Assembly: GCF_022026155.1 (NCBI RefSeq)
Contig: NZ_CP085041.1
Coordinates: 218,306 to 282,305, forward strand
Length of the DNA stretch: 64,000 nt
Reading direction: 5' to 3'
Origin: Dissulfurimicrobium hydrothermale
Lineage (GTDB): Bacteria > Desulfobacterota > Dissulfuribacteria > Dissulfuribacterales > Sh68
The notes under the pieces were generated by a model, which was given only the letters and a program-made list of their open reading frames with translations, was not told the origin of the DNA and ran no database searches. Positions 12,478-29,296 of this stretch are shown one piece after another. The position numbers and the translations under genes were made by a program. How positions within the stretch are numbered: the stretch's first letter is position 1; each line of letters opens with the position of its first letter.

Positions 12478-14751
12478 ATGCCTGATTGGAAAAAAAAGAA
12501 GATATTGCTCATGGGCTCCAGGGTGACGATAACAAATATGCCCATAAAAGAGGTGAACCTTATCGCCCAGGGGAGTCTACCGGCCTACGGCTATGACCCA
12601 GGCGACTTCATAGAACTGATGGCGGGCAAGGTCACGATTGAAGAGGGACGTCTTGAGCAGTGCCTCACCTGGCTCTCCTCCTACCTGACCGCATCGGGGC
12701 TAAATCCGAGGATTAGCACCCTTAATTACGGCGTACGAAGAGACGTCTTTCAGATATTCAAAAAACGCAGCAGCCAAGGCCCTGTCGAAAACGATCACGG
12801 CTGGTTCATGGTCCAACAAATACTCCCTCCCGGGGGAAGAAGTACCGAACCTGACCATATTGAAATAACAAACGACAACAAATCGGCACTGGAGGCAAAC
12901 AACGGCATAGTGATCATTGACGACGGGGGAAATCCGCCGAGACTTGCAGGAGAAATAAAAGAACTCAACCCAGGGGCATGGGCGATAGCCCTCGGCATAA
13001 GCGCGGCCCACTGGCAAGGCTGGGTGGAATCTTTTAAGGAAAATTTCATATTGATATGCAGACTTTCCGATCTCGAAACCACGCGAATGGAGATGGACAG
13101 CTCAATCCTATGGGAATCCACTGTGGCAATGGCCGTAAGGGCGCTGAAGAGCCCAGAGGTGGGGCTTTGGGATGAGAGATCGAACCGCTTCAAATGCCAC
13201 ATAATGGTTGAGATGTTTCCTGACGGCATACTTTACATCGGCCCTGAAACGGCCATGTTCAGGCATTGGGAGGGGGCCCTTCCAGGGGTTGGATCACGCA
13301 ATACATATGGTTCGGTGCCATGCTATGATACACTTCTTCCCGCCATGCTTTCGATAGACTGTCTGCGTATAGGCGGGATACCGCTCGACAGCAACTACTT
13401 TTTTGATTTATCAAAACGCGTCCTCCTGAACTGGCATCAGCTCCACCAGCATGGATATTACTTCACCGACGGCTTGGAATTCCCGAATCTCGACTTTTCA
13501 TCAACATATCCTACCGGGGTCCCATGCTCATTCCTGAATACATACGATGACCCATGTTTCTTTGTACTGCCACCCTTCACCCCACATCTTGAACACATGC
13601 TGGAAATCGTCTCCAGCCAGTCATGGTGCAAAGACAGAAAACAGGCCATAAGGTCGTTTTTCAGGGCCAATACACCGGCCAATCAGTGTGAAACAACCGG
13701 CCCAGCAGCAACCGCAAGAGACCTGGGGTATATAGGTGTTATACTCTCGGTGCTGAAACACCTAAAGGAAGAAGTAAACCGCAAGGCCGGCTTCAAATAT
13801 CTGCGCCTCTTCCAGGTAGGCGCCCTCCGAACAACGGACCCGGTCGAGATCGAACCGGTCATGGCCCTTCAAAGGGTGATGGACAGCTATGTTACAAAGG
13901 AACATGTCAAGCGCCCTTTATGCGTAGGGGTATTCGGTCCACCGGGCTCAGGTAAATCATTTGCCGTGGAAGAGGTTGCAAGGGTCATCTCAAAAAGGTT
14001 CGACAGAAACCCGTTTGAATTCTTTCAATTCAATCTGACGCAGTTTTCAGGTCCTGAAGAGATAAATTCAGCCATCGATCTTGTCAGGGCCTCTGTAGCA
14101 AAGGGAAGGATCCCGATCACCTTTTGGGACGAATTCGACTGCCGCTATGACGGGTTTGAATTCGGATATCTGAGATATTTTCTACCGTCCATGCAAGACG
14201 GCGTCACATACGTAAACGGCATTCCCAGGCACATAGGCCGGTCGATATTCGTCTTTGCAGGCGGGGTAAAAGAGTCATGGGATGACATGACCGCACTCCT
14301 GCAACAACCCAGCGATCAAATAGACAGGATGGTCAAGACCCTCAAAATCCCTGATTTCATGAGCAGGCTCAGGGTGGTCTTGGACATAGAGGGTATAAAG
14401 ATCCCTGAGGAACTACTAAGAGATTCGACGTCTGGCGAGGACCTTGAAACCCTGCGGATGATCCTGCTCAAGAGGGCCTTTATAATAGCGCACCAGATGG
14501 ACAACCACTGGCCGAAGGCCGCCCGAAAGACCTCCGGACTCTTGCTGCGGCTCCTCATAGCCAGATACAAATTCGGCGCACGATCCATTGAGGCGGTGAT
14601 AGAATCGAGCCATGCTGCCGACCGGCTCGTCTACGGACTGCCTGAGCTTATTGCCCCTCCTGCCGCAAGGATACATGCCGAATGGCGGATAGACCTTGAA
14701 AGGAGGGTAGACCAAATCAGAAAAGAATTCGGCCTAAGGGGGGTCTGGTAG
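12478..14751 (+). CDS. Large AAA+ ATPase with unusual N-terminal half
   Basis: The 757-residue protein has an AAA+ module in its C-terminal half: Walker A GPPGSGKS near residue 487, Walker B ITFWDEFD near 550, and a sensor-like IFVFAGGV. The N-terminal ~450 residues contain segments (NNGIVIIDDGGNPP, ILICRLSDLETTRMEMDSS, CHIMVEMFPDGILYIG) faintly like a degenerate PfkB/ribokinase-type fold, at low certainty. No nuclease, HTH or membrane segment is seen. AAGGAGTTGTTGAA lies before the ATG. Its 3' end overlaps the convergent phoR 3' end by 18 bp. I do not recognise a named family. Confidence 0.75.
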   Translation: MPDWKKKKILLMGSRVTITNMPIKEVNLIAQGSLPAYGYDPGDFIELMAGKVTIEEGRLEQCLTWLSSYLTASGLNPRISTLNYGVRRDVFQIFKKRSSQGPVENDHGWFMVQQILPPGGRSTEPDHIEITNDNKSALEANNGIVIIDDGGNPPRLAGEIKELNPGAWAIALGISAAHWQGWVESFKENFILICRLSDLETTRMEMDSSILWESTVAMAVRALKSPEVGLWDERSNRFKCHIMVEMFPDGILYIGPETAMFRHWEGALPGVGSRNTYGSVPCYDTLLPAMLSIDCLRIGGIPLDSNYFFDLSKRVLLNWHQLHQHGYYFTDGLEFPNLDFSSTYPTGVPCSFLNTYDDPCFFVLPPFTPHLEHMLEIVSSQSWCKDRKQAIRSFFRANTPANQCETTGPAATARDLGYIGVILSVLKHLKEEVNRKAGFKYLRLFQVGALRTTDPVEIEPVMALQRVMDSYVTKEHVKRPLCVGVFGPPGSGKSFAVEEVARVISKRFDRNPFEFFQFNLTQFSGPEEINSAIDLVRASVAKGRIPITFWDEFDCRYDGFEFGYLRYFLPSMQDGVTYVNGIPRHIGRSIFVFAGGVKESWDDMTALLQQPSDQIDRMVKTLKIPDFMSRLRVVLDIEGIKIPEELLRDSTSGEDLETLRMILLKRAFIIAHQMDNHWPKAARKTSGLLLRLLIARYKFGARSIEAVIESSHAADRLVYGLPELIAPPAARIHAEWRIDLERRVDQIRKEFGLRGVW

Positions 14752-18809: not shown

Positions 18810-18912
18810 GTTGCCTGTCAAATGCCAGAGATGGCAGGATCGTCTCTGTTTTCTGGTCCTTGTTTTGATTTTATGATAAGCGCATATGCATAGGCGCTGA
18901 AAGAGGTAAAAT

Positions 18913-20268
18913 ATGAAAAGATCCCCGACAGTCTTCGCTCGTGAATGCGCTGCGATCGAACCAGCCACCGCCAATGAGCCTCCTTCGCATCAAGACGAAG
19001 AGCCTCCTTCGCCTCCATGCCGGTCGAACATACCGCCAGCGCTCGCCAGTCTCTGGGCTGACATCACGCAAGCACAGTGGAATGATTGGCGGTGGCAGTT
19101 CAAAAACAGACTTCACAGCCTGAAAGACCTCACCCTCCTTCTTGGCCTCAAACCAAAGGTGTTGGATAGATTCAGAAGGCTCCTTGACACATATCGTTTT
19201 TCGGCAACGCCTTATTACCTTTCCCTTATAAACTGGAACGATCCAAATGACCCTATCTTCCGTCAATGCATCCCTGACCTTGCAGAGATTGAATACAACG
19301 GAACCAGTGCAGAGATCAGCTGCATGCAAGAGATCGATACGGAAGACCCCCTCGAAGAGGAAGAAGACAGCCAAGTGCCGGGACTAGTGCACCGCTACCC
19401 CGATCGAGTCCTTGCGGTCGTGACAAACAGGTGTTCCATGTACTGCCGCCACTGTACCAGAAAACGCATATGGCACGAACCAGAGGCGGAAAGGAGCTAC
19501 CAGGACCTCCAGCGCATGATCGACTATGTCGCTGCTACACCAAAGGTAAGGGAGGTGATTGTATCGGGTGGAGATCCCTTGACCATGAACATGGACAAGC
19601 TCGACTGGTTTCTGGGCGCACTTGAGGCCATCCCCCACGTCGAGGTGCTAAGGATCGGCACCCGCATACCCGTTGTACTGCCTATGCGCATAACCGACGA
19701 ACTCTGTGCAATGCTCGGCCGCCACCGCCCCCTTTGGCTCAACACCCAGTTCAACCACCCCAACGAGGTGACACCCGAAGCGGCCCTGGCGTGCGACAGA
19801 CTGTTGAAAACCGGCATTCCTGTCTCGAACCAGACCGTCCTCCTGAGGGGCGTAAACGATTCATTGGAGATCATAAAGGCACTATGTCATGCATTGCAGC
19901 GCATCATGGTAAGGCCATATTATCTGTTTGAGTGCGATCCTGTAAAAGGGGCGGAACACTTCCGCACCAGCATCTGGACTGGCGTCAATATTATCGAAGG
20001 CATGAGGGGACATACAGGCGGCCTCTGTATCCCGACCTTTGTGGTGGATGCAACAGGCGGGGGCGGTAAGATACCCCTTCAACCCTTCTACCTCTTGTCA
20101 GCCAATGATGAAGAGGTGATATTCAGGAACTATGAGGGGTTGATCATAAGATATCCCAATCCGTATCCTGAAAATGACCCTGCAAAGAGACATGCTGCAT
20201 CACCGCCACCCGCTGATGAAGGAGACCGATACAGACGCAGGCATCTAAAGGCCGGAGGTACAATATAA
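18913..20268 (+). CDS. KamA-family radical SAM aminomutase (lysine 2,3-aminomutase type)
   Basis: The 451-residue enzyme has the radical SAM cluster Cys174-x3-Cys178-x2-Cys181 (NRCSMYCRHCTRKR). The PLP lysine lies in the conserved VVDATGGGGK. Both acidic residues known in the clostridial enzyme to bind the lysine side-chain amine are kept: Asp in FECDPVKG and Asp in VVDATGG. This argues for L-lysine to L-beta-lysine rather than glutamate chemistry. The first ~40 residues are an unusual Pro/Ser/Glu-rich extension. GAAAGAGG precedes the ATG. It starts a four-gene operon with two ATP-grasp ligases and an acetyltransferase. Confidence 0.88.
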   Translation: MKRSPTVFARECAAIEPATANEPPSHQDEEPPSPPCRSNIPPALASLWADITQAQWNDWRWQFKNRLHSLKDLTLLLGLKPKVLDRFRRLLDTYRFSATPYYLSLINWNDPNDPIFRQCIPDLAEIEYNGTSAEISCMQEIDTEDPLEEEEDSQVPGLVHRYPDRVLAVVTNRCSMYCRHCTRKRIWHEPEAERSYQDLQRMIDYVAATPKVREVIVSGGDPLTMNMDKLDWFLGALEAIPHVEVLRIGTRIPVVLPMRITDELCAMLGRHRPLWLNTQFNHPNEVTPEAALACDRLLKTGIPVSNQTVLLRGVNDSLEIIKALCHALQRIMVRPYYLFECDPVKGAEHFRTSIWTGVNIIEGMRGHTGGLCIPTFVVDATGGGGKIPLQPFYLLSANDEEVIFRNYEGLIIRYPNPYPENDPAKRHAASPPPADEGDRYRRRHLKAGGTI

Positions 20269-21273
20269 ATGCACCTAGGCCTTACATACGACCTCAAGCA
20301 AGACTACATGGATAGAGGATGGAGGCCCGATGATGCGGCCGAATTCGACTCAGCCGAGACTATAGACGCCATAGCCTCTGCGATAGAAAGGCTTGGACAC
20401 AGGGCAAGCCGTATAGGCAACTGCCTGGACCTTATAACGGCGCTGGCCGCCGGTAAACGCTGGGATCTCGTATTTAACATAGCCGAAGGCACACACGGGA
20501 GAAGCAGGGAGGCCCAGGTGCCTGCTATCCTTGAGTGCCTCTCCATACCCTACACCATGTGCGACCCCCTTACCGCATCCATAACACTTGACAAAGAAAC
20601 GGCTAAACGGATAGTGCGCGACCACGGCCTTGCCACCCCTGATTTCACGGTGATCAAAAGGCCCGGCGACATAAACACCGTCACGCTGCCATTTCCGCTT
20701 TTCTTAAAGCCTGTGGCAGAAGGTACGGGCAAGGGCATATCATCGCGATCCCTTGTAAGAGATCATGACGAACTCGAGTCCGCCGCGCTAGAAATGCTCA
20801 AGACCTATGCCCAACCCGTACTGGTTGAGGCTTATCTCCCTGGACGCGAAGTCACTGTGGGCGTAATAGGCACCGATGACGAGGCCGAGGCAATAGGCGT
20901 TATGGAGATCATATTCAAACCAGGGATAAAAGATGCATTTTATTCCCACCACGTAAAAGACAACTACAAAAAATTCGTAGAATACAGGCTACTTGAGCCA
21001 GGAGATGATGCGCGGAAGGCTGAAGAGCTTGCCGTATCAGCCCACACGGCCCTGGGGTGCAGGGATGTATCAAGGGTGGACCTCAGGGCTGACGGTCATG
21101 GGAAATGGCATTTCCTCGAGGTGAACCCGCTTCCCGGTCTGCACCCAGTTGATTCAGACCTTCCTATACTCTGTCGGCTTAAAGGTATTGAGTATCACAA
21201 GCTGATAGAAAATATCATATCCTCAGCGCTCAAACGAATCCATTCCCCTTATGCGGGTAGCAATAATATATAA
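20269..21273 (+). CDS. ATP-grasp ligase, D-Ala-D-Ala-ligase-like (first copy)
   Basis: The 334-residue protein has the Ddl-type ATP-grasp layout: an N-terminal domain (WDLVFNIAEGTHGRSREAQVP), ATP-binding strand PLFLKPVAEGTGKGI, LVEAYLPGREVTVG, and metal ligands in HFLEVNPLPGLHPVDSDLP. It forms an amide bond through an acyl phosphate. The ATG follows the kamA stop with no gap and GGAGG 10 bp upstream, so translation is coupled. The substrate is unknown; beta-lysine or its product is the obvious guess. It differs clearly from the next ligase. Confidence 0.85.
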   Translation: MHLGLTYDLKQDYMDRGWRPDDAAEFDSAETIDAIASAIERLGHRASRIGNCLDLITALAAGKRWDLVFNIAEGTHGRSREAQVPAILECLSIPYTMCDPLTASITLDKETAKRIVRDHGLATPDFTVIKRPGDINTVTLPFPLFLKPVAEGTGKGISSRSLVRDHDELESAALEMLKTYAQPVLVEAYLPGREVTVGVIGTDDEAEAIGVMEIIFKPGIKDAFYSHHVKDNYKKFVEYRLLEPGDDARKAEELAVSAHTALGCRDVSRVDLRADGHGKWHFLEVNPLPGLHPVDSDLPILCRLKGIEYHKLIENIISSALKRIHSPYAGSNNI

Positions 21274-22327
21274 TGCCGTAGACGGGAACTGCGATCCGTC
21301 CGAACTTGATGTCTTGGATCAGGCACAGACAGTGGGTAAGGCCCTCGATGTACTAGGGGTAACATATGCCGCCTTACCCATAACTAAGATATTCAAGGAT
21401 CTTATGTATGGCATCGAGAGATTCAGGCCTGACATAGTCTTCAATCTCGTTGAATCAGTTAGCGGAAAAGATGAACTCCATCCAAATATCGCAGCGGTGC
21501 TTGAACTGATCGGGCTTCCATTTACCGGATCATCGGCCCGAGGTCTCTGGCTTACCACTGACAAGATCATTGCCAAGGAGATAATGCAGGCGAGGGGCAT
21601 ACCAACCCCTGATTTTTGGACATATCCAGAGGATATGCGGCCCTACCGGGTCTGCCGCACAGGCGAATGGACCGCAGATGATCACCTGCTGGCTTGCGGA
21701 CATGATGTCCGCTGTCGAAAAACCGGGGGTCCGTGGATCGTAAAGCCCGCTGCAAAGGATGCCTCTATCGGCATAGACGAAGATGCCGTCTTTTCCTCCG
21801 CGGATGATCTCATGGCAGGGCTGTCGTCGAGATGGAAGGCGCCTGACGCTAAACCGTTCCTGGTAGAGCGATACATACACGGACGAGAATTCAACATATC
21901 CATGCTTGAAAGACCTGGAGGTGTCGAATGTCTGCCTCCGGCGGAAATCGTGTTCCGCAATCACCCGAAAGGGCGCCCGAAGATACTTGACTGGCAGGCG
22001 AAGTGGGACACATCAGCCCTATCTTATCATAACACGGTGAGATCATTTGACTTTACGCCAGAAGATCTTCCGCTTCTCGAGAAGCTGAAGGCCCTGGCAA
22101 AGGCGTGTTGGAAGGCCTTTGAACTAAACGGCTATGCAAGAGTCGACATGAGAGTAGATGAAAACAAGATGCCCTGGATCCTCGAGATAAATGCAAACCC
22201 ATGCCTGTCCGGTAATGCAGGATTCATGGCTGCGGCCAGGGAGGGCGGACTTTCGAAAGAAGAGGTCATCAAGAGGATACTTGAGGCCGCAATGCGATAT
22301 GAACAGCCTTTATCCCATAAACCTTAG
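21251..22327 (+). CDS. ATP-grasp ligase, D-Ala-D-Ala-ligase-like (second copy)
   Basis: The 358-residue protein begins MRVAIIYNAVDGN and shows the same fold: DIVFNLVESVSGKDELHPN, WIVKPAAKDASIGID, LVERYIHGREFNISML and metal-binding WILEINANPCLSG. It overlaps the first ligase by 23 bp. A cysteine-containing insert near residue 140-160 (CGHDVRCRKTGG) is unusual. Two successive ligases suggest two amide bonds in the product. It could instead act in a side route of cell-wall modification, but there are no murein genes nearby. Confidence 0.85.
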   Translation: MRVAIIYNAVDGNCDPSELDVLDQAQTVGKALDVLGVTYAALPITKIFKDLMYGIERFRPDIVFNLVESVSGKDELHPNIAAVLELIGLPFTGSSARGLWLTTDKIIAKEIMQARGIPTPDFWTYPEDMRPYRVCRTGEWTADDHLLACGHDVRCRKTGGPWIVKPAAKDASIGIDEDAVFSSADDLMAGLSSRWKAPDAKPFLVERYIHGREFNISMLERPGGVECLPPAEIVFRNHPKGRPKILDWQAKWDTSALSYHNTVRSFDFTPEDLPLLEKLKALAKACWKAFELNGYARVDMRVDENKMPWILEINANPCLSGNAGFMAAAREGGLSKEEVIKRILEAAMRYEQPLSHKP

Positions 22328-22823
22328 AACGCATCTAAACGCAACGGACGCGGTCGGAATCAAGGCGCTGCTCGATCGCACAGGCCTCTTCAGGGCCGAT
22401 GAGGTGGTCGTGGCCCTGGAACTGGTAAACGACCGCCTGTTTCTACACGGAGACAAAAGCGATTACCTGTTTGTCGTGGCGGAGACATCTATCGGCGGCG
22501 CTGAAGGTCTCGCAGGTTTTGCATGTTACGGACGCATCCCGTGTACCAAAGCGAGTTTTGACTTATACTGGATAGCCGTAGAACCTGAAATGCAGGGCCT
22601 TGGCATCGGCAAGGTCATCCTCAGTCTCGTCGAATCCATGATAATCAGCTCAGGAGGCCAAAGGCTCTATGCCGAAACCTCGTCACAACCCTCTTATGAA
22701 ACAGCCCGTCTGTTTTATGAAAGATGCGGCTTTAAGCGCCTTGCCTTCTTGGAAAATTTTTATGCCGAAGGTGACGGCAAGATCATATACGGCAAAAAAC
22801 TTACACCTCCAATATCAAACTAA
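22299..22823 (+). CDS. GNAT-family N-acetyltransferase
   Basis: Read from the ATG at 22299, the protein has 174 residues and the acetyl-CoA loop in VEPEMQGLGIGKVILSLVE, followed by the ARLFYERCGFKRL segment. It overlaps the second ligase by 29 bp; a longer in-frame reading from 22191 lies wholly inside that ligase and is not credible. It is shorter than AblB beta-lysine acetyltransferase, so it is not simply the classical N-epsilon-acetyl-beta-lysine pair. It likely acylates an amine of the operon product. Confidence 0.82.
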   Translation: MNSLYPINLRTHLNATDAVGIKALLDRTGLFRADEVVVALELVNDRLFLHGDKSDYLFVVAETSIGGAEGLAGFACYGRIPCTKASFDLYWIAVEPEMQGLGIGKVILSLVESMIISSGGQRLYAETSSQPSYETARLFYERCGFKRLAFLENFYAEGDGKIIYGKKLTPPISN

Positions 22824-22887: not shown

Positions 22888-23982
22888 ATGATGAGCATCG
22901 CCCCTATCAGGTTCAAGACACCCATTGCAATCGGCACAGCGTCACAAAACAGATACCATATGCAGCTCAATGGGTTCGGCGCTGTCAATTCCTTTAACGC
23001 TGCCCTGGCCAGCGCAAAAGAAAATGCTATGCCGAATGACCATACTGCCACGATGCAGGCAGGTAAAAATTTCCATGCCGAAGACGCGGCGTCGACCAAT
23101 GCGCCGCCGAACGCGCCAGCCGAATCAATGTCGGACAACCTTGCAAAGGTTATGGCAGCACTTGAACAGGAGCGCTTTCTGGCCTTTCTGCTTACTAGAC
23201 TCGGCCAGGTCCCGACAGCTCAGGATCAGGGCGCAGTTATGGATATTGCAGAGGCGCCGCAGGTGATCTCTTTCCAAACACAGGCGATCCATGTACCAGC
23301 CGCACATGACACCGCTGCAAGCAGTATCCATGGCGACACCTTGGAAGATACCGGGCATGGAGAAATAGGAAGGCTTTCGGCTGAATTTGAATCTGGCAAT
23401 CAAGGTCCTGGAACAATAGGTTATGATGAAACAGGCGGAACGTCCTATGGGACATACCAGATTTCAAGCCGCCGAGGTACCTTTAACCGTTTCATCTCAT
23501 TTCTTGAAAAATACGCCCCTGACTATGCAGCAAGACTTAAGGCCGCCGGGAACCCGGATACAGGCGGAAAGTCAGGCAAGGTCCCGCAGGAATGGCAGAG
23601 GATCGCAAAGGAAGATCCAGGGGGCTTTGAGGCCCTGCAGCGACAATTCATCAAAGACACCCACTACGGCCCAGCGCTTCAAAAAATCGCCCAGAACACT
23701 GGTATCGACCTGAGTGAAAGGTCATCCGCACTTAAAGAGGTGCTGTGGAGTACATCTGTCCAACATGGGCCTGACGGGGCCGCCAGGATATTCAAGAAGG
23801 CCATTGAAGGCCTCAGGGCCAAAGGCGATCTCTCCGATCAGGCCATCATAAATGCCGTATATGACATAAGAGGCCGCCAGTTCGGTTCTTCTGCCCAGCA
23901 GGTGCAACAGGCTATAACCAGAAGGTTTTCAGAGGAGAAGGTGGCGGCCCTTGGTATCCTGAAAGACAATATCAGCGTTTAA
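22888..23982 (+). CDS. VgrG3-C-like muramidase/peptidoglycan hydrolase with disordered N-terminus
   Basis: The C-terminal ~200 residues (from about 155) begin LSAEFESGNQGPGTIGYDETGGTSYGTYQIS, the lysozyme-like fold seen in the effector end of VgrG3-type proteins and some phage endolysins, with a likely catalytic Glu in FESG. The first ~150 residues are low-complexity, Ala/Asn/Glu-rich and probably disordered; no signal peptide is visible. No type VI secretion or phage structural genes are near. GGAGGC precedes ATGATG. It may be a phage-derived or flagellum/pilus-associated wall hydrolase. Confidence 0.65.
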   Translation: MMSIAPIRFKTPIAIGTASQNRYHMQLNGFGAVNSFNAALASAKENAMPNDHTATMQAGKNFHAEDAASTNAPPNAPAESMSDNLAKVMAALEQERFLAFLLTRLGQVPTAQDQGAVMDIAEAPQVISFQTQAIHVPAAHDTAASSIHGDTLEDTGHGEIGRLSAEFESGNQGPGTIGYDETGGTSYGTYQISSRRGTFNRFISFLEKYAPDYAARLKAAGNPDTGGKSGKVPQEWQRIAKEDPGGFEALQRQFIKDTHYGPALQKIAQNTGIDLSERSSALKEVLWSTSVQHGPDGAARIFKKAIEGLRAKGDLSDQAIINAVYDIRGRQFGSSAQQVQQAITRRFSEEKVAALGILKDNISV

Positions 23983-24352: not shown

Positions 24353-24508
24353 ATGAGGCGGGCCAAGCTGTACCGCATGGCCCAAGATGGGGACATTCCG
24401 ACTTCCAAGGTCGGCAACCAATGGCGCTTCGACCGAGATGGAATCGACCAGTGGATGAAAAGTCAGAGGCCAGTGACGGGTAAGGTGCCAACCGGAGGAA
24501 CAGAATGA
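24353..24508 (+). CDS. Truncated excisionase-type helix-turn-helix protein
   Basis: The 51-residue reading (MRRAKLYRMAQDGDIPTSKVGNQWRFDRDGIDQWM) is the C-terminal two-thirds of an HTH_17/excisionase-family domain; the usual first helix (a 'LTVEEVAEYL'-type segment) is missing. Its stop overlaps the ATG of the helicase gene in an ATGA arrangement, so translation is probably coupled. Either it is a decayed regulator or the true start is a non-standard codon upstream in the same frame. Confidence 0.5.
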   Translation: MRRAKLYRMAQDGDIPTSKVGNQWRFDRDGIDQWMKSQRPVTGKVPTGGTE

Positions 24509-27500
24509 ATCCCTCCTCAACTCAAAGCTCGAATGAAAAAGCCGTTCGATTGGTCGATTATCTGCTTCGATTGGCGTCATTACGCACCAAGTTGATCCGC
24601 GACGTTGATGAATACGAGAAAGTGCTTTGGGTGTCGAAGGTTCCGAATGAGCGAGGTTGCTTCACACAGGCTTGGGGGAGCGATGAAGAACATGAACCGG
24701 ACGAATGGCTGGAAGTTCAAAACCGGCATGAGCCGGAATTGCCTGCTGTTCCTGCTCAATGCAAAGACTGGGTGAACCAAGAGGCGCTCCGCAACAAGAA
24801 CGACCTGCCCGGACTCTTCCCGGAAATCCAGCGGCAAATCCAGAATCCTGATTGGCGCGAGGGATCGGATCAGCCGGAAACCATCCCGCATACTGAACGC
24901 CTTGAGGATCATCCCGAGGTTCAACAAGCATGGAATCGCTATGTCGAAGACAAATGGTTGCCCTGGACGGAAGAGCACAATGCATGGGAAAAGGTCCACA
25001 AGGTCTATTCCTCTCTCTTTGCCATCCATCAAGAACAGCTCCGGCTCGGCGAGGAATACGAACTGGTGCTCGGTTTGGGATTGCTGACATGGCAAACACC
25101 CACCGGGCAGCGCGCCCGACGTCATTTGGTTGTCGCCGACGCCATTCTGGAGTTTGAAGCCCGCCTGGGGAAATTCACCGTCCGTCCCCACACCGAGGGT
25201 GCCAAGCTGCGCCTTGAACTCGATATGCTGGACATCGAGGAGCAACCGGCGCGCGCGGAGGAAACCGCAAAGGCGTCACTGGCTGCGGCCGAAGACGATC
25301 CGTGGGAAAAGGGTTGTGTCGAAGGCGTCCTTCAGGCCCTGGTGCATTCGATCAACTCACAGGGCGATTATGAGGGTGCTCTTGAAGCCAAGAACATCCG
25401 CGCCTCGGCAAAGCCCATCGTAGAATACGCCCCCGCCTTGATTCTGCGAAAACGTTCCGCCAAAGGTCTTGCCGAAACCTTGAAACGGATCAAGGAGCAG
25501 ATAGAAAACGGGGAAGACGTTCCCTGTGAATTTGCGGACCTTGCGGAGATTCGCCCGAATAACGATCGCGCAACGGGCGATGGCCCGGAGGAGGCCAACG
25601 TCCCGTTCGATAGTGAAATCTTCTTCCCAAAGCCATCCACGATGAGCAGCGCCTGATTGTTGACAAGATTCGAGCGGCAAGCGGTGTGCTGGTCCAAGGG
25701 CCGCCCGGCACTGGGAAATCTCATACCATCGCCAATCTGATTTGCCATCTGCTTGCCACAGGACAGCGAACGCTGATCACGGCGAAGACGCCTCGCGCTC
25801 TTCAGGTTCTTGAAGGACTTGTGCCTGTTGAGTTACGGCCTCTTTGCATCAATCTGCTTGGTAGCGGACTTGGAGAACGCCGCTCTCTCGAATCCAGCGT
25901 TGGCGGCATTCTCCGCAAGAATGAGGAGTGGAACGAAGATCGCGCCGGGCGAGAGCGCACGGGACTTGAAGAGCGCCTTCAGAATCTCCGTGAAGAGAAG
26001 GCCAAGGTCAACCGCCGGCTCCGCGACATCAGGGAGTCCGAGACTCATACGCAGTCCGTCGCGGAGGGAGCCTATCGAGGGACGGCGGCGAGAATCGCTG
26101 AAGCTGTGAACCAGCATCGCACCGACTACGAATGGTTCGCGGATTCCGTTCCTTTAGACAAGACGTGTCAGATCTCCACAGACACTTTGCGAAGCGTTCT
26201 CTCGGCTTTGCGCCAATTCACGCCAGAGAAGCGCCAGGAATTGGGCCTTGCATGGCCTGAGGAGTTGCCATCCCCTGAGCAATTTGCCAAACTCGTAGGG
26301 AATGAAACCAGCGCGACTGAAGAAGAGCAAAACTCGGCTCGCGGGGCCGATGAACATATCGCCAATCTTTTGGAACGAAACAATCCTCTGGCCATCGAGG
26401 CGATCCTTAACGCTTTCTCAACGTTCCGTGACACTCGCAGGAGACTCCTCGCAATGCCGCATTCATGGATGATCGATGCCTTGCGCGATATTCTGGGCGG
26501 TAATTCGTCCCTGTGGCATGAGCTTTTCCGTGTTACACGAGACGTTATTGCGTCAATCGAAGCACTCGTTGCGGTCGCTGACGAGACCCGAATCGAATTC
26601 CCGGACACTACCGATATCAGATCCTTGTATGAAGACGGCGGGAAACTGAAAGAGCACATGGAGAACGGCGGGAAACTGGGTTGGGGGTTGTTTCGGCCTA
26701 AACCGGTGAAAGAGCGGTTATACGTTATCAAGGCCGTGAAGATTGGCGGCCGCCCATGCTCCACGGTCGAACATTTCTCAACTCTTGCCGAGGCACTGTA
26801 CGTTCGCATTGAATGCGAGAAGGCGTGGGGGTTCTGGAATGGGCGAAGTGAAAAGGTTGAAGGCCGTACACTCTCCAACTGACCGCCCTCAAGTCATTGT
26901 GCGATGCGCTCAAAAACGCCCTGGCGCTTGAGGAACTCATTGCCAAATGCCAAGAAGCGATAAAACAATGTTCAGGCATGGGCGAACCCGTATGGGCCGA
27001 CGAATCCCAGATTGAAAGGGTTATCTCCTCGTGTCGCCTTGCATTGGCCCGTATCCGCAAGCGGCGCGCCATCGAGGAAATTCAGAGTATTGAGACCACG
27101 ATCTCACTCATGGCTGCCAGTGGCGACACGCATCCGGTGACAAACGATTTGCTGAGCGCCGTGCACAGCCGCGACGTGGAAAAGTTCGCACGATGCGTGA
27201 ATACGATTCAAGATTTGACAAATGAGCGTCAGTGCCTTCAGAAAATGGACGATGATCTGTCAGATTTGCGCCGTTTGCTCCCGCAGTTCACAAAATCCTT
27301 GGAACAAACCTGCAACGATCCTTATTGGGAGGAGCGAGTCCAGCATATCAATGACGCCTGGCATTGGGCCCAGGCGCGGTACTGGCTCGAGGATTACATC
27401 CGGCAGGAAGACGTTCCAGCGCTCGCCAAACGCGCCAAACAAATCGAGGACGAGATCAACAACATTATAGCGAAGCTTGCCGCGCTTCACGCCTGGTCGT

Positions 27501-29296
27501 TCTGTTTCTCGCGGCTCAAGAAAGACCATTGCGGTCACATGGCAGCTTGGCAACTGTCCATGCGGAAACTTGGCAAAGGGACGGGAAAGCACGCGCCGCA
27601 TCACCGACGTGAAGCGCAAGAACATTTGAATAAATGCCGTGAGGCGGTTCCGGCATGGGTCATGCCGCTCCATCGCGTTTGGGACACGGTGTCTCCCGCG
27701 CCCGGCATGTTCGATGTGATTATCGTTGACGAGGCTTCGCAATGTGGCTTCGAAGCCCTCCCCTTGTTCTATCTGGGAAAGAAGATAGTGATCGTTGGCG
27801 ATGACAAGCAGATCAGCCCAGACGCTGTGGGTTTGCCCCGCGATCCGGTGCATCGCCTGATGGAAGAATTCCTTCACGATTTCCAGTTCAGGTCGTCGTT
27901 CGATATTGAGAGCAGCCTATTCGATCACGGGAAACTTCGGTATGGAACCAGACGTATAACGCTGCGGGAGCATTTCCGCTGTATGCCGGAGATCATTCGA
28001 TTCAGCAACAATCTGTGCTATTCGGATACTCCGCTGATCCCCTTGCGGCAATATGGCCCGAACCGCCTGCCTCCGCTCGACCATGTCTTTGTGAAAGGCG
28101 GATATCGTGAGGGCTCGAACAACCGTGCGATCAACCGTCCGGAGGCCGAAGCCATCGTTGAGAGAATTGCAGAGATGAGCGGCGACAGTCGTTATGACGG
28201 CAAGACGATGGGCGTGGTAGTGCTTCAAGGTGAGGCGCAAGCGGCTTTGATCGAGAGTCAATTGCTCGAACGATTGGGCGCCGAGGAAATGGAGCGGCGC
28301 CGCTTGATCTGCGGCAATCCCTACAGTTTCCAGGGCGACGAGCGAGACATCATGTTTCTGTCGCTTGTCGCTGCCAGCAACGAAAGAATCGGTCCCCTCA
28401 CAAAAGCGGTGGATGAGCGACGTTTCAATGTCGCGGCCAGCCGCGCCCGTGACATGATGATTCTTTTCCACTCGGTCACTTGTGACGATCTCAGCGCCTT
28501 GTGTCTTCGACGTCAGTTGCTTGAGTTCTTCGAGAACACGAAACCGCAACAGATCGCCGGAATCGAGCGGGACGAATTGGAGCGGCGAGCGGCCCAGGAC
28601 AACCGGCGCGTTGTGAGTCCTCCCGCACCATTCGAAAGTTGGTTCGAGGTTGACATCGCCTTGGAACTTCTTCGCAGGGATTTCACGGTGCTTGCCCAGC
28701 ATGAAGTCGCAGGCAAGCGGATTGATCTCGTGGTCGAGGGCGGACAAGCGCGTCTGGCGGTCGAGTGCGACGGCGACCGTTGGCATGGCGCTGACCGCTA
28801 TGAAGACGACATGCAACGCCAGCGACAATTGGAGCGTTGCGGATGGGAGTTCTTCCATGTCAGGGAATCGGCATTTTACTCAAACAAGGTGGATGCCTTG
28901 AATGGTCTTTGGAATGCACTAGATAAAAGAGATATTTATCCGCAATATGTTGATGTTTCAAAAGAATCAAGTACATACTCATTTTTGAGACGCAAGACGA
29001 AGCGACCGAGCAAGAACCCCCGAGAAAGCGAGCCCGATAGGTCTATTCATGGGTCAGAGATCGATATCAAAGTCGAAGTTGAGGATACCGTAGTTTATGT
29101 AGATATTGAAAATCCTCAGGACGAAAAGCAGGCATTAATAACTTATGAAAGATCAAATCCGGAATGCGGGGCTATCAATATCAACACGCCAATCGCAAGA
29201 GCGCTTTTAGGTAAGCCATTAAACTCCATCGTTGAGGCAAAGTTACCCAAAGGAACGGTCTCGTTACGCATCAAAGACATTAAGAAGCCAGTCTAA
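24505..29296 (+). pseudogene. SF1 helicase fused to MTES_1575-type nuclease and GreA-like C-terminus; two frameshifts
   Basis: Three consecutive open stretches (24505-25656, about 25640-26882, about 26870-29296) make one protein of about 1,590 residues if one base is restored near 25640 and one near 26870. Restoration gives continuous sequence (PKPS then DEQRLIVDKIRAASGVLVQGPPGTGKS). It carries Walker A GPPGTGKS, VIIVDEASQCG, GDDKQISP, and UPF1-like SFQGDERDIMFLSLV and FNVAASRARD. The nuclease domain has KRIDLVV and AVECDGDRWHG, like the MTES_1575 restriction-endonuclease family. The end (VEVEDTVVYVDI to INTPIARALLGK) resembles the GreA/GreB C-terminal domain. It is probably a phage-defence protein, inactive unless the shifts are sequencing errors. 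Confidence 0.82.

What the first reader, a model, noticed from the sequence alone, without database searches (positions are those of the whole stretch)
18913..22823. Four-gene operon: lysine-2,3-aminomutase type enzyme, two ATP-grasp ligases, GNAT
The genes overlap or abut (0, 23 and 29 bp), so they are one translational unit. The KamA-type enzyme keeps both Asp residues known to bind the lysine side chain, so beta-lysine is the likely first product. Two different Ddl-like ligases and a short GNAT then suggest a beta-lysine amide or acetylated small peptide. The classical N-epsilon-acetyl-beta-lysine route uses only ablA and a longer AblB, so this is another pathway, perhaps an osmolyte, a cell-wall tag or a metabolite. 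No export or regulator gene is attached.
Basis: partly seen in the sequence, partly recalled or inferred. Interest (0 to 1): 0.75.

Follow-up and report, generated by a model that had tools for sequence, protein, structure and literature searches.

The report
Conserved operon for a beta-lysine conjugate
Four overlapping genes, found in the same order in dozens of distantly related bacteria, look like an undescribed pathway that turns lysine into beta-lysine, joins it to other small molecules with two peptide-bond-forming enzymes and puts an acetyl group on the product; what the product is and what it does are not known.

Summary
Four + strand genes at 18913-22823 (KamA 451 aa, LigA 334, LigB 358, GNAT 174) abut or overlap by 0, 23 and 29 bp. 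The order KamA-LigA-LigB-GNAT recurs in 28 of 41 relative loci mapped (27 from the window's phylum, one Acidobacteriota). In the phylum sample KamA lies within 6 kb of LigB in at least 69 of 99 LigB genomes, and 98 of those 99 have a KamA against 175 of 296 others. Cluster KamAs are not one clade (AU p = 2.5e-5) while the window's ligases join the main family, so different KamAs were recruited repeatedly: the strongest evidence that the ligases need the KamA product. The ligases have the Ddl fold but miss all Ddl cut-offs, and the genome has its own Ddl. Classical AblB is absent. Some relatives add a GNAT-deacetylase; in a divergent branch arginine decarboxylase replaces KamA at the cluster. 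Best reading: a dedicated pathway for an N-acetylated beta-lysine conjugate with two ligated bonds. Partners, stereochemistry, acetylation site and role (compatible solute favoured weakly) are inference. No description was found in the open-access library searched.

The parts
18913..20268 (+). KamA-type radical SAM/PLP aminomutase (451 aa); likely lysine 2,3-aminomutase. CxxxCxxC at residue 174, Asp pair D316/D342, GGGGK motif at 382; lacks the C-terminal part of LAM_C
   Evidence: LAM_C matched over positions 1-58 of 127 only; TIGR00238 337.8 over cut-off 199.2; AblA 480.6 under cut-off 525.4; 2a5h E 3.7e-127
20269..21273 (+). LigA, ATP-grasp ligase with D-Ala-D-Ala ligase fold (334 aa); keeps the Ddl catalytic pattern (E25, Y225, R269, N286) and the acceptor-carboxylate Ser (S296)
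   Evidence: best Ddl model 166.8 under cut-off 243; pLDDT 94.4; best fold match DdlB 8evy, E 3.7e-25
21251..22327 (+). LigB, second ATP-grasp ligase of Ddl fold (358 aa); keeps R297 and N314 but the Ddl acceptor Ser-Leu is replaced by Ala-Gly (invariant G324)
   Evidence: 113.5 under cut-off 243; pLDDT 88.7; best fold match DdlA 8evx, E 5.8e-23
22299..22823 (+). GNAT N-acetyltransferase (174 aa); closest solved relative 2r7h, deposited as putative D-alanine N-acetyltransferase
   Evidence: 2r7h E 5.5e-32
18826..18848 (+). terminator-like hairpin after the upstream lipoprotein gene, 64 bp before KamA (weak hint that KamA starts a new transcript)
   Evidence: 5 found against 4.3 expected in shuffles, so not significant on its own

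Best explanation
The operon encodes a dedicated pathway for an N-acetylated beta-lysine conjugate. KamA converts L-lysine to beta-lysine (inferred from family and active-site residues). LigA and LigB, two ATP-grasp ligases derived from the D-Ala-D-Ala ligase fold, each spend one ATP to form one amide bond and build a small peptide or amide with beta-lysine (that they are ligases rests on fold and conserved residues; that they use beta-lysine is inferred from repeated gene association). The GNAT caps an amine, probably a side-chain amine, with acetyl. In some relatives an extra GNAT-deacetylase protein may remove or adjust the cap. The product is most likely a soluble primary metabolite; [quoted passage not shown] LigB has lost the pocket that binds the acceptor carboxylate in Ddl, so its acceptor may be an amine or a beta-amino acid.
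For: Order KamA-LigA-LigB-GNAT in 28 of 41 relative loci, LigA-LigB median gap 2 bp. KamA within 6 kb of LigB in at least 69 of 99 LigB genomes. KamA present in 98 of 99 LigB genomes against 175 of 296 others, Fisher p = 9e-18. Linked KamAs rejected as one clade, p-AU 2.5e-5, while window LigA and LigB are sister to the main family: repeated recruitment of KamA to the same ligases. Same association with a rearranged order (LigA-LigB-GNAT-KamA) in Acidobacteriota with a second ligase subfamily. LigB-GNAT fusions tie acetylation to the ligase step. Separate housekeeping Ddl in the genome. GNAT-deacetylase gene inside or next to the cluster in several relatives and fused to the cluster GNAT in some. 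Classical AblB over cut-off in only 1 of 40 cluster genomes and not in the window's.
Against: No activity or product is known for any member. The Asp pair is shared by unlinked KamA paralogues, so lysine specificity is not proven. Five loci of the second ligase subfamily lack an adjacent KamA and sit beside arginine decarboxylase, so the ligases may also or instead use an arginine-derived amine. No osmotic riboswitch or other known RNA element at the cluster and no consistent salt-stress neighbour. The Fisher test ignores shared ancestry.
Confidence: 0.55

Rival explanations
1. Polyamine or agmatine conjugation. The ligases join an amino acid (beta-lysine or another) to an arginine- or lysine-derived amine, and GNAT and deacetylase act on acetylpolyamine-like groups.
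For: All five KamA-less ligase loci in the phylum set that belong to the second ligase subfamily sit beside pyruvoyl arginine decarboxylase; an agmatinase-family gene is next to it in two and a deoxyhypusine-synthase-like gene is nearby in three. The accessory deacetylase belongs to the histone-deacetylase/acetylpolyamine-hydrolase family. LigB lost the acceptor-carboxylate Ser. Those five genomes carry a KamA elsewhere, so beta-lysine could be the second substrate.
Against: The window's genome and 21 others of the 40 cluster genomes tested have no pyruvoyl arginine decarboxylase, though other decarboxylases were not searched. The decarboxylase link is confined to a divergent subfamily.
Confidence: 0.2
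2. Modification of a macromolecule (cell-wall peptide, translation factor or lipid) with a beta-lysyl group rather than a free metabolite.
For: Ddl-fold ligases usually serve the cell wall; beta-lysine is known on elongation factor P in other bacteria (general knowledge).
Against: No cell-wall, EF-P or lipid gene recurs near the cluster; EpmB cut-off not met (236.7 against 369.3); beta-lysylation of EF-P uses an aminoacyl-tRNA-synthetase-like ligase, not ATP-grasp (general knowledge).
Confidence: 0.12
3. A secondary metabolite (antibiotic or metal binder) containing beta-lysine.
For: The negamycin cluster combines beta-lysine formation with ATP-grasp ligases (PMC12154649).
Against: LigB in 99 of 395 phylum genomes at E <= 1e-30 and 85 of 247 of the Acidobacteriota set at E <= 1e-60, though the latter count probably includes more distant relatives; a conserved minimal core without transporter, resistance or tailoring genes.
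Confidence: 0.08
4. Ordinary parts by chance: a KamA and spare Ddl copies that happen to be neighbours.
For: Each protein belongs to a large common family.
Against: Conserved order over two phyla, repeated recruitment of KamA, domain fusions.
Confidence: 0.02

Closest known systems
AblA/AblB N-epsilon-acetyl-beta-lysine osmolyte pathway (methanogens, some bacteria; PMC1224877, PMC3543383)
   Same: KamA-type aminomutase plus a GNAT acetyltransferase in one operon
   Different: Two additional ATP-grasp ligases; AblA equivalog cut-off missed (480.6 against 525.4); GNAT is a 174-aa protein and there is no AblB-family match in the genome; KamA lacks the C-terminal part of LAM_C
N-acetylglutaminylglutamine amide (NAGGN) osmolyte pathway
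   Same: Logic of acetyltransferase plus ATP-grasp ligase making an acetylated charge-masked dipeptide solute (solute in PMC1224877; enzymes from memory)
   Different: No asparagine-synthase-like amidotransferase in the operon; beta-lysine rather than glutamine expected; two separate Ddl-fold ligases
D-alanine-D-alanine ligase (Ddl) and Van ligases
   Same: Fold and most catalytic residues of LigA and LigB
   Different: All listed Ddl and Van model cut-offs missed; genome has a separate Ddl; LigB acceptor Ser-Leu replaced by Ala-Gly
Negamycin-type beta-lysine ATP-grasp natural products (PMC12154649)
   Same: Beta-lysine formation together with ATP-grasp amide ligases
   Different: No N-N bond enzyme, hydroxylase or N-methyltransferase in the operon; very wide conservation of a minimal core

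Membership tests
KamA family radical SAM protein (TIGR00238) | model score over curated cut-off | tested here: met
   337.8 bits against 199.2
KamA family radical SAM protein (TIGR00238) | CxxxCxxC cluster motif and GGGGK | tested here: met
   CSMYCRHC at residue 174, GGGGK at 382
Lysine 2,3-aminomutase AblA (TIGR03820) | equivalog cut-off | tested here: not met
   480.6 against 525.4, still the best of the aminomutase models
Lysine 2,3-aminomutase AblA (TIGR03820) | Asp pair that binds the lysine epsilon-ammonium | tested here: met
   D316 and D342, but shared by unlinked paralogues
Lysine 2,3-aminomutase AblA (TIGR03820) | activity on L-lysine | not testable with these tools
   needs an enzyme assay
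AblA/AblB osmolyte pathway | AblB beta-lysine acetyltransferase (TIGR03827) in the genome | tested here: not met
   no match in G000; over cut-off in 1 of 40 cluster genomes
D-alanine-D-alanine ligase | NCBIfam Ddl cut-offs | tested here: not met
   best LigA 166.8 and LigB 113.5 against 243
D-alanine-D-alanine ligase | Ddl fold | tested here: met
   Foldseek E 3.7e-25 (LigA) and 5.8e-23 (LigB) to Ddl structures
D-alanine-D-alanine ligase | being the housekeeping Ddl of the genome | tested here: not met
   separate Ddl, 196.3 bits to PF07478, at G000:C1:545371
D-alanine-D-alanine ligase | Ser-Leu pair that binds the acceptor carboxylate | tested here: inconclusive
   LigA keeps the Ser; LigB has Ala-Gly; read from alignment only
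NAGGN osmolyte pathway | amidotransferase gene in the cluster | tested here: not met
   no such gene among the four; neighbours are a glycine-zipper protein and a VgrG3-like C-terminal domain
EF-P beta-lysylation enzyme EpmB (TIGR03821) | equivalog cut-off | tested here: not met
   236.7 against 369.3

The most novel reading that the evidence does not exclude
An undescribed primary-metabolite pathway, shared by at least two bacterial phyla, in which a swappable lysine aminomutase feeds two dedicated Ddl-fold ligases that build an acetylated beta-lysine peptide or amide, with a deacetylase in some lineages making the acetylation reversible.
Probability: 0.4. Interest if true: 0.75.

Novelty: new variant of a known kind. 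Interest (0 to 1): 0.6.

Why it matters
If right, about a quarter of the sampled genomes of this phylum, and many Acidobacteriota, make a beta-lysine conjugate that nobody has described in the literature I could search, with genes that look like spare D-Ala-D-Ala ligases. It would widen the small list of beta-amino-acid solutes, supply two ligases with a testable beta-amino-acid substrate, and explain why KamA homologues without AblB are common in these bacteria. The module is small, so expression of four genes in a laboratory strain would test it directly.

Tried and rejected
Literature: ten searches found no paper on this operon; the library is open-access only and several term sets returned zero, so this is weak evidence of absence. 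Rfam: no riboswitch at the cluster in the window or in eight related loci (the c-di-GMP-I hit in L089 at 11988 lies kilobases away). Neighbour genes as a clue to role: Pfam on recurring neighbours gave V-type ATPase, PhoU-like/phosphate transporter, CorA, SIS/CBS and others, no common theme. Plasmid search with LigB: the ten rows listed were all ligases at or below 32% identity, and the two contexts looked at were unrelated. The one genome-contig scan used LigB alone and returned a single Acidobacteriota locus; an alignment query would have been wiser. The Asp pair as proof of lysine specificity was dropped after checking unlinked paralogues. The downstream VgrG3-like gene as a fifth member was rejected: no homologue near the cluster elsewhere.
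Full report
OBSERVATION. The four genes are present exactly as described: KamA 18913-20268, LigA 20269-21273, LigB 21251-22327, GNAT 22299-22823, all on the + strand, with junctions of 0, -23 and -29 bp. Pfam and NCBIfam confirm the families. KamA has the radical-SAM motif CSMYCRHC, matches clostridial lysine 2,3-aminomutase 2a5h over 372 residues (E 3.7e-127) and keeps the two Asp of the lysine pocket (D316, D342). It scores highest with the AblA model but under its cut-off (480.6 against 525.4), and its LAM_C match covers only positions 1-58 of 127. LigA and LigB are Ddl-fold ATP-grasp enzymes (structure models with pLDDT 94.4 and 88.7 whose best fold matches are Ddl) that miss every Ddl or Van cut-off among the models listed. 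The genome is a single 2.03 Mb contig with a separate Ddl. The GNAT's nearest solved relative is 2r7h, deposited as a putative D-alanine N-acetyltransferase, a name that I take to be a guess.

CONSERVATION. A search of 395 genomes of the phylum with LigB gave 99 at E <= 1e-30. I fetched and mapped 40 stretches from the phylum (some from a smaller relatives search) and one Acidobacteriota record, L036. The order KamA-LigA-LigB-GNAT holds in 28 of these 41, and LigA-LigB spacing has a median of 2 bp. Those not matching include contig ends and loci where GNAT or KamA is missing or moved. KamA lies within 6 kb of LigB in at least 69 of the 99 genomes; the list of KamA matches was cut by the tool, so this is a lower bound. 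KamA of any kind at E <= 1e-55 is present in 98 of 99 LigB genomes and 175 of 296 others (Fisher p = 9e-18); this test treats related genomes as independent. In the Acidobacteriota set 85 of 247 genomes had a LigB-profile match at E <= 1e-60, but that profile also reaches more distant relatives. Of 20 loci fetched there, 14 show KamA beside the ligases, some as LigA-LigB-GNAT-KamA with a second ligase subfamily.

REPEATED RECRUITMENT. In a tree of 56 KamAs, the 33 linked to the ligases fall in separate places: a main clade of 28, the window's KamA, L067, L069, and L070 with L102. Holding them as one clade is rejected (p-AU 2.5e-5). The window's KamA groups with unlinked KamAs, among them the second KamA of its own genome, whereas the window's LigA and LigB are sister to the main ligase family. 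So the ligases stayed and the aminomutase was replaced, probably more than once. Some branches are long and the ligase trees carry warnings, so the exact number of events is open, but a functional need for the KamA product is the simplest reading.

VARIANTS. (1) LigB and GNAT are fused in several loci (L073, L087 and L097 by domain scan; L067, L074, L077 and L080 by ORF length and two-part matches). (2) A protein of 570-600 aa with an N-terminal GNAT domain and a C-terminal histone-deacetylase/acetylpolyamine-hydrolase domain (Pfam E 2e-77 in L085) lies in or next to the cluster in several relatives and is fused to the cluster GNAT in others; the one match of this family in the window's genome is a 359-aa frame, too short for this fusion. 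(3) In five loci of a divergent subfamily KamA is replaced at the cluster by pyruvoyl arginine decarboxylase, with agmatinase-like and deoxyhypusine-synthase-like genes near some of them; those genomes carry a KamA elsewhere, in four of the five behind a small, possibly MerR-like gene. The window's genome has no such decarboxylase.

ACTIVE SITES (alignment only). LigA keeps the Ddl Glu, Tyr, Arg, Asn and the Ser that binds the acceptor carboxylate (roles in Ddl from general knowledge). LigB keeps the Arg and Asn but has Ala-Gly where Ddl has Ser-Leu, with Gly invariant over 37 rows. This suggests an acceptor without a carboxylate at the usual place. Both Asp of the lysine pocket are present in most unlinked KamAs too, so they support a lysine-like substrate without proving it.

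MECHANISM. Shown: the gene set, its conservation, the fold and key residues, the repeated association. Inferred: lysine to beta-lysine by KamA; two amide bonds by LigA and LigB at the cost of two ATP; N-acetylation by GNAT; optional deacetylation. Unknown: partner amino acids or amines, stereochemistry, order of steps, role. [quoted passage not shown]

NOVELTY. Classical AblB is over its cut-off in only 1 of 40 cluster genomes. The nearest published parallel I read is the negamycin cluster, which pairs beta-lysine formation with ATP-grasp ligases (PMC12154649). No paper on this operon turned up in ten searches of an open-access library, which leaves most subscription journals unsearched. I file it as a new variant of a known kind: known enzyme families in an undescribed, widely conserved combination.

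Noticed in passing
window 24505-29296: Three consecutive + strand ORFs (383, 398, 799 aa); the last two together look like one large AAA_11/AAA_12 helicase with a C-terminal MTES_1575 nuclease domain and a GreA/GreB C-terminal domain, apparently split; PADLOC matches PDC-S37 and Mokosh MkoA/MkoC.
   Followed up: partly
window 22888-23982: 364-aa protein with a T6SS VgrG3-like C-terminal domain directly after the operon; no homologue near the cluster in other loci.
   Followed up: partly
window 12478-14751: 757-aa protein with only a weak MoxR-like AAA match and no PADLOC match.
   Followed up: no
L118 3944-5104 (window genome, C1 near 1340000): Second KamA of the window's genome (387 aa, Asp pair kept), in the same KamA group as the operon's KamA; role unknown.
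   Followed up: partly
L147-L151: KamA paralogues of about 600 aa that carry Ser/Lys in place of the lysine-pocket Asp pair, so probably another substrate.
   Followed up: no
L113, L114, L116, L117: Stand-alone KamA preceded by a small, possibly MerR-like gene of 91-106 aa in genomes whose ligase cluster lacks KamA; not seen in L115 at the 90-aa limit.
   Followed up: partly
L106 5634-6557: Extra RimK-like ATP-grasp protein between arginine decarboxylase and LigA in one locus.
   Followed up: no
L089 11988-12068: c-di-GMP-I riboswitch aptamer on the - strand, kilobases from the cluster.
   Followed up: no
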